Source of the DNA: Halorubrum sp. CBA1229
GTDB taxonomy: Archaea; Halobacteriota; Halobacteria; Halobacteriales; Haloferacaceae
Assembly (NCBI RefSeq): GCF_003721435.2
Contig: NZ_CP054585.1
Coordinates: forward strand, 1,116,001-1,180,000
Direction of reading: 5' to 3'
Length of the DNA: 64,000 nt
Below, one piece after another: positions 3,484-38,571 of the stretch. The stretch's first letter is position 1, and each line of letters starts with the position of its first letter. The translations under genes were made by a program, and so were the position numbers. The notes beneath the pieces are model-generated. The model had not been told where the DNA came from. It worked only from the letters and a program-made list of their open reading frames with translations, and did no database searches.

Positions 3484-3952
3484 TTTATTTATAAATAGCC
3501 GGCGCGGTGGCGCGCCTCCGAGCGGCCGCCATCGGCGGCCGCGAAGGAGCCCGCGAGGGAGTCAGTCGCCGGAGCGAAGCGGAGGCGACTGACGAGGCTG
3601 GGGAGGCGTGAGGTGCGGTGCCGTGCGGGGTGGGACTCAAAGGGGCAGCCGTGAGCGGGGGGCAGGCGTTCACGAGAGCGGAGCTCTCGTGAGCCAATCA
3701 GAACGCTTTGCGTTCTGATGACGACGTAAGGACCGCAAGGAGGGAGCGGTAGCGACCGACTGAGGACCGCAGCGAGCGTGTCCCCCGCTCACGGTTGGGG
3801 CTTTGGAGGTCGTCGTCGCGGAGGAACGGATCACGTACAGCCGAACGACTGGTATTTTGGAGGTCGTCGTCGCGGAGGAACGGATCACGTACAGCCGAAC
3901 GACTGGTGGTTTGGAGGTCGTTTGCGTTCGTGTGCTCTCGGCTATTTATAAA
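3484..3952 (+). ncRNA. candidate structured RNA element, copy 1
   Basis: The element starts with the TATA-like run at 3484-3496. The conserved block GCCTCCGAGCGG follows at about 3515. Helix P1 pairs 3522-3530 with 3534-3542. P2 pairs 3561-3570 with 3584-3593 around a 13-nt loop. A fixed core (GAGGCTGGGGAGGCGTGAGG, then GTGGGACTCAAAGGGGCAG) leads to P3, pairing 3649-3661 with 3782-3794. Inside P3 lie hairpins 3670-3679/3683-3692 and 3698-3706/3710-3718. P3 is followed by GGGGCTTTGG, two 54-nt modules and TTTATAA at 3945-3951. The copy at 38111-38480 has the same plan with compensatory changes in P1, P2 and P3, which argues for RNA rather than DNA-level or protein function. Confidence 0.7.
3802..3914 (+). 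repeat. 54-bp tandem repeat, two units plus start of a third
   Basis: TTTGG marks the start of each unit at 3802, 3856 and 3910, a period of exactly 54 bp. The first two units are nearly identical; the third diverges after about 12 bases. The period is a multiple of three, so a repetitive open frame appears across it, but composition and context do not support a protein. The second element in this window has one diverged unit of the same length. Confidence 0.85.
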
Positions 3953-36258: not shown

Positions 36259-36272
36259 TGGACTCGCGGGGA
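36259..36272. repeat. attR candidate within tRNA-Ala
   Basis: TGGACTCGCGGGGA covers the discriminator base, the 3' acceptor strand and part of the T stem, and is identical to 17024-17037. The integrated element therefore lies downstream of the tRNA's 3' end. Confidence 0.75.
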
Positions 36273-36330
36273 TTTGAACCCCGGGCCTCTTCCTTGCGAA
36301 GGAAGCGATCTGCCGCTGATCTACGAGCCC
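36259..36330 (-). tRNA. tRNA-Ala (CGC anticodon)
   Basis: 72 nt from G1 at 36330 to the discriminator A at 36259. Acceptor GGGCTCG pairs with CGAGTCC and includes the G3:U70 pair that identifies tRNA-Ala. The anticodon stem CTTCC/GGAAG closes the loop TTCGCAA, giving CGC. The T arm is CGGGG-TTCAAAT-CCCCG. No intron and no encoded CCA. Its 3' end is the attachment site of the provirus, which leaves the tRNA intact. Confidence 0.95.
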
Positions 36331-37356: not shown

Positions 37357-38120
37357 TGCGGACCGACATCGACGCGGACGGCGACGCGGAGGTCGCCCCC
37401 GACGCCGAGGCCGGCGCGGCCGCCGACGCGGGATCCGACCGAGAGACGACCGACGCGGCCGAGTCGGTGGCGCGCGCGCTCGACGCCTTCCGCGCCGGCG
37501 ACCCGGTCTGCGTCCACGACTTCGCCGACCGCGAGGGCGAGACGGACATCGTCTACCCGGCCGGCGCCGTCGACGAGTCGGCCGTCGCGCACATGCGGAA
37601 CGACGCCGGCGGGCTGATCTGCGTCGCGGTCGGGGACCCCGTCGCGGACGCGTTCGGGCTCCCGTTCCTCGCGGACGCGCTCGACCACCCCGCGGTCGAC
37701 GACGACCCCGACTACGACGACCGCTCCTCGTTCTCGCTCCCCGTGAACCACCGCGAGACGTTCACCGGGATCACCGACGAGGACCGCGCCCGCACGATCG
37801 TCGAGCTCGCGGGCGCGGCCGCCGCAGTCGACGCCGACCCCGCGGGGTACGGCCCCGAGGACTTCGCGGCGGAGTTCCGCGCGCCCGGCCACGTCCACGT
37901 GCTGCGCGGCGACCGCGACGGGCTGGGCGGCCGGACCGGCCACACGGAGCTCGGGCTGGCGATGGCCGAGGCCGTCGACGCCGCCCCCGCCGCCGTGGTC
38001 TGCGAGATGCTCGACGACGAGACGGGCGCGGCGCTGACGCCCGCGGACGCCGAGGCGTACGCCCGCCGCCGCGGGATCCCGTACGTCGAGGGCGCCGCGC
38101 TCGTCGAGGCGCTTAAATAA
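37356..38120 (+). CDS. ribB: 3,4-dihydroxy-2-butanone 4-phosphate synthase
   Basis: 254 residues. A halophilic Asp/Ala-rich leader of about 45 residues precedes the enzyme: VHDFADREGETDIVYPAGAV (acidic active-site loop), HMRNDAGGLICVAVGD, then FRAPGHVHVLRGDRDGLGGR and GHTELGLAMAEAV with the catalytic His region. It converts ribulose 5-phosphate to the four-carbon precursor of riboflavin. Coupled to rbkR. The TAA stop lies in the TATA-like start of structured element copy 2. Confidence 0.92.
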   Translation: MRTDIDADGDAEVAPDAEAGAAADAGSDRETTDAAESVARALDAFRAGDPVCVHDFADREGETDIVYPAGAVDESAVAHMRNDAGGLICVAVGDPVADAFGLPFLADALDHPAVDDDPDYDDRSSFSLPVNHRETFTGITDEDRARTIVELAGAAAAVDADPAGYGPEDFAAEFRAPGHVHVLRGDRDGLGGRTGHTELGLAMAEAVDAAPAAVVCEMLDDETGAALTPADAEAYARRRGIPYVEGAALVEALK

Positions 38121-38480
38121 GCGAACGCAGTGCCGTCGGCGCGTGCCTCCGAGCGGTCGCCATCGGCGACCGCGAGGAGCGCGTGCGAGGGAGTCGGTGG
38201 TCCGGAGCGAAGCGAAGGACCACCGACGAGGCTGGGGAGGCGTGAGGTGCTGTGCGGTTGCGGTCGGGTGGGACTCAAAGGGGCAGTCGCGAGGACGAAG
38301 GCGCGCGACGCAAGGACCGCAGGAACGAGTGAAACGAGTGACGAGGACCGCAGCGAGCGCACCGAGTCCTCGCGACTGGGGCTTTGGTGTTCACCGTCGA
38401 CCCGTCAGTAACTGCGTATCACCGAGCGGTTGGGGATTTGGAGTGGATCACCGCCGATCCAGTATCAACCGTTTATAACT
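38111..38480 (+). ncRNA. candidate structured RNA element, copy 2
   Basis: TATA-like CTTAAATAA at 38112-38120 is followed by GCCTCCGAGCGG at 38145. P1: 38153-38161 with 38165-38173. P2: 38193-38203 with 38217-38227 around the same 13-nt loop as copy 1 (one base different). The fixed core is identical in sequence to copy 1 at GAGGCTGGGGAGGCGTGAGG and GTGGGACTCAAAGGGGCAG. P3: 38285-38296 with 38366-38377. Then GGGGCTTTGG, one 54-nt module (TTTGG at 38383 and 38437) and TTTATAA at 38472, 35 nt on. Helix sequences differ from copy 1 but pairing is kept. Confidence 0.7.
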
Positions 38481-38571
38481 GATCGACCGTGCCGTTGCCA
38501 GCGGTGCCTCCGTATTCGACCGACTTCTCCGCATGTCGCAGATTTAAGACCGACGGCCGCAACCTCCGACC

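What the first reader, a model, noticed from the sequence alone, without database searches (positions are those of the whole stretch)
3484..3952. Structured RNA element with helix covariation between two dispersed copies
Copy 1 (3484-3952) and copy 2 (38111-38480) share identical single-stranded blocks, while the helices differ in sequence yet pair perfectly. P1 changes a C-G pair to T-A. P2 changes from GTCAGTCGCC/GGCGACTGAC to GTCGGTGGTCC/GGACCACCGAC. P3 changes from a 13-bp stem to an unrelated 12-bp stem. Both have a TATA-like sequence about 25-30 bp before the conserved start. This pattern is strong evidence for a transcribed structured RNA family. I do not recognise it as a named class.
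Basis: seen in the sequence. Interest (0 to 1): 0.85.

Follow-up and report, generated by a model that had tools for sequence, protein, structure and literature searches.

The report
Haloarchaeal hundred-copy folded RNA element
Salt-loving archaea of the genus Halorubrum carry roughly a hundred copies per chromosome of an apparently uncatalogued 300-450 base element whose one strand folds into the same elaborate RNA-like shape in every copy even though its stems have completely different sequences; what it does is not yet known.

Summary
A covariance model from the element finds 102 copies in this genome, all on the 3.2-Mb main contig and none on the 364-kb second contig. All 52 Halorubrum genomes searched have it, mostly 50 or more copies each. 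A broadened model finds relatives in 218 of 391 Halobacteria genomes (48 of 86 genera). Covariation is extreme: in the 3' domain 98.4% of cells pair, 22 of 32 pairs show double changes, and slid controls collapse to 27-39%. G-U outnumber A-C oppositions 84 to 11, so the + strand is the folded one. Non-Watson-Crick features (three tandem G-A motifs and a GGG/GGG loop) are held in 55-60 of 61 copies. Single copies stay at the same site between species while their stems are replaced. I found no Rfam match, no paper, no viral copy and no link to the genome's IS200-type transposase or to a reverse transcriptase. Best reading: an ancient, chromosome-borne family of intergenic structured RNA elements, REP/BIME-like in abundance but larger and more elaborate. 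Transcription and function are untested; a cis-acting intergenic RNA is my leading mechanism, an ssDNA-mobile origin the main rival.

The parts
3488..3494 (+). Copy 1: TATA-like box TTTATAA upstream of P1
   Evidence: Sequence; 63/87 copies carry it, control 2/308
3510..3554 (+). Copy 1: P1 (3510-3519 with 3546-3554) enclosing hairpin P2 (about 3522-3543)
   Evidence: Covariation in 33 copies
3561..3593 (+). Copy 1: P3 hairpin, GTCAGTCGCC/GGCGACTGAC
   Evidence: Sequence; 6 of 6 P3 pairs with changes on both sides
3594..3613 (+). Copy 1: conserved single-stranded block GAGGCTGGGGAGGCGTGAGG
   Evidence: Near-invariant in alignment A2; related form in other genera
3632..3648 (+). Copy 1: conserved block GGGACTCAAAGGGGCAG; CAAAG pairs with CTTTG at 3801-3805, GGG faces GGG
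3646..3797 (+). Copy 1: P4, long irregular helix (arms 3646-3661 and 3782-3797) carrying extra inserted hairpins
   Evidence: P4 covariation in 61 copies; arm pairing
3795..3952 (+). Copy 1: 3' tail, three tandem units (54, 54, partial); the last holds TTTATAA at 3945-3951
38111..38120 (+). Copy 2: TATA-like GCTTAAATAA; its last three bases are the stop codon of the upstream gene
38138..38186 (+). Copy 2: P1 (38138-38150 with 38176-38186) enclosing P2 (about 38153-38174)
38193..38227 (+). Copy 2: P3 hairpin, GTCGGTGGTCC/GGACCACCGAC
38228..38247 (+). Copy 2: conserved block GAGGCTGGGGAGGCGTGAGG
38270..38286 (+). Copy 2: conserved block GGGACTCAAAGGGGCAG
38284..38378 (+). Copy 2: P4 (arms 38284-38296 and 38366-38378) with tandem G-A motifs in the apical part
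38376..38486 (+). Copy 2: tail, a 54-bp and a 57-bp unit; the second holds TTTATAA at 38472-38478

Best explanation
This is an ancient, multi-copy, chromosomal element of haloarchaea whose + strand folds as an RNA. A 5' domain (P1, P2, P3 and the block GAGGCUGGGGAGG) is joined to a 3' domain: a long P4 helix closed by CAAAG/CUUUG, with a GGG/GGG internal loop and tandem G-A motifs. Shown here: the family, the fold, the folded strand, its spread and its persistence at single sites. Inferred: the strand is transcribed, from its own 5' box or by read-through; the folded RNA acts in cis, between genes, as a boundary or transcript-end element, with the invariant G-rich and tandem G-A parts bound by a protein (or forming a potassium-stabilised G-quadruplex) while the stems only hold the shape. 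The tail looks like repeated duplications of the 3' strand of P4 that decay with distance from it.
For: 102 copies in the genome; 52/52 Halorubrum genomes; 218/391 Halobacteria genomes, against a best score of 17.2 bits in 348 kb of unrelated DNA. P4: 98.4% of cells paired, 206 cells with double changes against 48 in shuffles, slid controls 27-39% paired. 5' domain: 96.2% paired. G-U 84 against A-C 11, p = 4.5e-15; tandem G-A and GGG/GGG kept in 55-60 of 61. The C-G closing pair of Halorubrum is G-C in 19 of 20 parsed copies from other genera. The same site is kept in most Halorubrum species examined at the 38-kb locus and in 13 of 18 testable places of a sister species, with P3 replaced yet paired. 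Around 100 copies, convergent gene pairs are the commonest context (33), and the intergenic space has a median of 520 bp.
Against: No transcript was seen and the promoter geometry is imperfect. Copies lie in every gene context, including 19% divergent, so a pure terminator role fails. Single copies are lost: 5 of 18 testable places lack an intact copy in the sister species. Folded single-stranded DNA could give the same covariation and a similar G-T bias.
Confidence: 0.45

Rival explanations
1. A non-autonomous mobile DNA family (REP/BIME- or PATE-like) that spread as folded single-stranded DNA under a transposase acting in trans, and is now mostly fossil; the fold is what the enzyme recognised.
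For: Copy number and intergenic location resemble REPs, which are described at >100 copies per genome with palindromes preserved by complementary mutations (PMC2817692). In other genera the 5' domain often occurs as convergent inverted pairs. One G009 site has a copy where G000 has 24 bp.
Against: The only Y1 transposase gene found in the genome is about 4 kb from the nearest copy and shows no clear similarity to the element. No target-site duplication pattern was recognised. Four of the five absences in the sister species are deletion remnants rather than clean empty sites. None in phages and nearly none on plasmids. Copies persist with intact pairing at the same site across species.
Confidence: 0.3
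2. Apparent covariation made by hairpin-templated repair of palindromes and gene conversion between copies, without selection for a fold.
For: Stem cassettes are exchanged en bloc: P3 differs in 7 of 8 ortholog pairs, twice matching another locus of the first genome.
Against: Templated repair would erase the conserved mismatches; three tandem G-A motifs and GGG/GGG are kept in 55-60 of 61 copies, wobble pairs are strand-asymmetric, and junction sequences outside stems are near-invariant.
Confidence: 0.08
3. A double-stranded DNA or cruciform site for chromosome organisation.
For: All 102 copies on the main contig, none on the second contig, against about 10 expected for even density.
Against: Strand-asymmetric G-U use; spacing is not regular.
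Confidence: 0.07
4. The 3' tail encodes a repeated peptide.
For: Unit spacing is a multiple of 3 in 139 of 148 non-identical neighbours.
Against: Every + strand frame has stops in 21-55% of units, and the other strand in 51-64%; no upstream frame is consistently open.
Confidence: 0.03

Closest known systems
Bacterial REP/BIME repeats with RAYT transposases (PMC2817692)
   Same: About 100 intergenic copies per genome, stems preserved by complementary changes, inverted pairs in some genomes.
   Different: Several times larger, two-domain, with conserved non-Watson-Crick motifs; no GTAG-type head and no flanked Y1 transposase gene found.
PATEs of Haloquadratum walsbyi (PMC3119063)
   Same: Haloarchaeal, dispersed, non-coding, palindrome-rich, no target duplication recognised.
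   Different: PATEs are related to IS605-type elements and show strain-specific insertions; neither was demonstrated here.
Large structured bacterial ncRNA classes such as HEARO, GOLLD and ROOL (from memory, a lead only)
   Same: Large, complex, covarying fold.
   Different: Archaeal, about 100 copies per genome, no associated protein gene or phage link found; no Rfam match to any family.

Membership tests
REP/BIME with RAYT | About 100 or more dispersed intergenic copies with stem complementarity kept | tested here: met
   102 copies; pairing kept
REP/BIME with RAYT | Short palindrome headed by a conserved GTAG-like tetranucleotide | tested here: not met
   The element is 300-450 bp with a TTTATAA box and GGCGCG stem at its 5' end
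REP/BIME with RAYT | A Y1 transposase gene flanked by two inverted copies | tested here: not met
   Only one PF01797 hit, about 4 kb from the nearest copy; no clear similarity
PATE (haloarchaeal IS605-related) | Ends related to an IS605-type transposon | tested here: inconclusive
   Only the one Y1-transposase locus was compared, no match; TnpB loci were not examined
PATE (haloarchaeal IS605-related) | Strain-specific insertions with definable ends | tested here: inconclusive
   One site lacks the element in G000; other absences are mostly remnants
MITE | Terminal inverted repeats | tested here: not met
   Copy 1 has inverted TTTATAAATAGCC ends, but copy 2 and most others share no terminal repeat beyond the TATA-like box
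MITE | Target-site duplication | not tested
   Element ends are not sharp enough to score it systematically
Any Rfam 15 family | Match at gathering score | tested here: not met
   Only a tRNA in the window; best weak hits to the elements have E of 3 or more
Retrotransposed SINE-like element | Reverse transcriptase in the genome | tested here: not met
   No PF00078 hit in the genome
Transcribed non-coding RNA | Discrete transcript | not testable with these tools
   No expression data available

The most novel reading that the evidence does not exclude
A new class of large structured RNA, present in about a hundred copies per chromosome and spread through the Halobacteria, that acts between genes through an invariant core of GGG tracts and tandem G-A motifs while its stems are freely swapped; possibly an RNA G-quadruplex element suited to potassium-rich cells.
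Probability: 0.35. Interest if true: 0.92.

Novelty: new variant of a known kind. Interest (0 to 1): 0.8.

Why it matters
At about 100 copies of 300-450 bp, this family makes up roughly 1% of a Halorubrum chromosome, yet it has no Rfam entry and no description that I could find in the open papers searched. It offers hundreds of natural variants of one fold, with stems swapped almost at will, so the fold and its binding partner can be studied directly. If transcribed, it would be a very abundant structured RNA family in archaea; if it moved as folded single-stranded DNA, it would be an unusually elaborate REP-like system.

Tried and rejected
A coding tail was considered because unit lengths are multiples of 3, and rejected because no frame is free of stops. 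A terminator-only role was considered and rejected because copies occur in all gene contexts. A retroelement was considered and rejected for lack of a reverse transcriptase. An IS200 partner was looked for without success. Regular spacing along the chromosome was tested and not found, apart from a lack of close neighbours (2 gaps under 3 kb against 9.2 expected). An exact 15-mer scan of viral contigs gave 25 scattered hits, not examined further; a more specific pattern of 18 fixed bases gave none. Literature searches gave nothing on this element.

Full report
OBSERVATION. Both copies are present as described and fold much better than dinucleotide shuffles (z -9.5 and -7.2). A DNA search of the window's own genome returned about 40 places, the number the tool scored. 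A covariance model of the 5' domain (R1, 33 copies, 162 positions) finds 102 matches in the genome. In the window it gives two hits above 130 bits and nothing else above 17.3 bits.

ANATOMY. From 5' to 3': a TTTATAA box in 63 of 87 parsable copies, peak 19-22 nt before the first paired base, against 2 of 308 control windows; P1 enclosing hairpin P2; the block GAGGGAGTC; hairpin P3; the near-invariant block GAGGCTGGGGAGG..TGAGG; a variable GT-rich stretch; GGGACTCAAAGGGGCAG; the long P4 helix; CTGGGGCTTTGGAGGTGTTCACCG; and a tail of tandem units of 57, 54 or 51 bp, the last usually with another TTTATAA. P4 can carry extra inserted hairpins, as in window copy 1.

EVIDENCE FOR A FOLD. An unguided scan of all column pairs in 60 aligned P4 domains ranked a largely nested set of pairs on top. 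With that structure fixed, 98.4% of cells pair, 22 of 32 pairs have double changes, 206 cells have double changes against 48 in shuffles, and sliding the partner by 1-3 columns drops pairing to 27-39%. The 5' domain gives 96.2% paired and 18 pairs with double changes. Between lineages the closing pair of the CAAAG/CTTTG helix is C-G in 152 of 154 Halorubrum copies and G-C in 19 of 20 copies parsed from other genera. Because the P4 structure was partly chosen from the same alignment, the slid controls favour it; the size of the gap and the agreement with the lineage change make this a minor concern.

STRAND AND NON-CANONICAL PARTS. Inside helices G-U outnumbers A-C 84 to 11 (p = 4.5e-15, treating cells as independent), so the + strand is the folded one. 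Three tandem G-A/A-G motifs and a GGG/GGG internal loop are held in 55-60 of 61 copies. Simple palindrome repair would have removed these mismatches, so selection on a defined single-strand fold is the better explanation. Whether that strand acts as RNA or as single-stranded DNA cannot be decided from sequence.

SPREAD. The genus was inferred from a pattern scan of named genomes, whose haloarchaeal hits were almost all Halorubrum. A broadened model (R2) matches 218 of 391 Halobacteria genomes in 48 of 86 genera, against a best 17.2 bits in 348 kb of unrelated sequence. Loci from ten distant genera show a related 5' domain (GGCGCGC..GCGAGGGATGAGCGA..GAATCGGCTGGGGAGG); only some carry the 3' domain, and some copies form convergent inverted pairs. 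Copy counts per genome are lower bounds because few candidates per genome were scored. No phage record and only four plasmid records matched.

EVOLUTION. In the genome all 102 copies lie on the main contig; about 10 would be expected on the second contig at even density. At the 38-kb locus most of the Halorubrum species examined keep the element at the same site with different stems. In a sister species with flanks about 94% identical, 13 of 18 testable places keep it; four of the five absences are deletion remnants and one leaves no trace. One place is filled in the sister and has 24 bp in the window's genome. P3 is replaced but still paired in 7 of 8 ortholog pairs, twice by a sequence found at another locus of the first genome. 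Tail units are closest to consensus next to P4 (identity 0.91, 0.81, 0.72 for units 1-3), as if the unit beside P4 is duplicated and released copies decay. Together this points to vertical inheritance with loss, not recent mobility, but does not exclude an earlier mobile phase.

CONTEXT AND MECHANISM. Around 100 copies the gene orientation, relative to the element, is convergent 33, both genes opposite 28, both genes in the same direction 20, divergent 19 (gene calls are my own codon-based predictions). There is an excess of convergent spaces but no exclusive context, so a pure terminator is unlikely. My leading mechanism is a cis-acting intergenic RNA whose invariant G-rich and tandem G-A core is read by a protein or forms a potassium-stabilised G-quadruplex. 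Every step after the fold is inference. The TATA box sits too close to P1 for a usual archaeal start at its base (from general knowledge of archaeal promoters), so read-through from neighbouring genes is possible.

KNOWN SYSTEMS. By abundance and placement it works like REP/BIME repeats (PMC2817692), and it shares traits with Haloquadratum PATEs (PMC3119063), but it fails tested defining features of the former and shows no tested link to IS605-type elements. Rfam 15 has no match, and sequence and keyword searches of open papers found no description; subscription papers and preprints were not searched, so prior description cannot be excluded.

UNEXPLAINED. Spacing of tail units is a multiple of 3 in 139 of 148 non-identical neighbours, although no frame is free of stops. 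Common descent of a few unit types may account for much of it.

Noticed in passing
window 11500-36330: A run of short, mostly minus-strand open frames ending at tRNA-Ala(CGC) at 36259-36330 looks like an integrated mobile element; it holds no copy of the family.
   Followed up: no
G000 C1, tails of the copies (L002-L357): Tail unit spacing is a multiple of 3 in 139 of 148 non-identical neighbours although no reading frame is open.
   Followed up: partly
L291 1700-1828: One copy has the apical part of P4 inverted, as if flipped by recombination between the arms.
   Followed up: no
L384, L385, L379, L397: In other genera copies occur as convergent inverted pairs a few hundred bases apart, like BIMEs.
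   Followed up: partly
G000 C1 143037-350563 and 3072121-96420 (across the numbering start): Two stretches of about 207 and 243 kb of the main contig hold no copy, perhaps acquired DNA.
   Followed up: no
window about 3668-3723 and many P4 loops: P4 loops carry recurring inserted hairpin cassettes (such as CACGAGAGC..GCTCTCGTG and CAGAACGC..GCGTTCTG) shared between copies.
   Followed up: no
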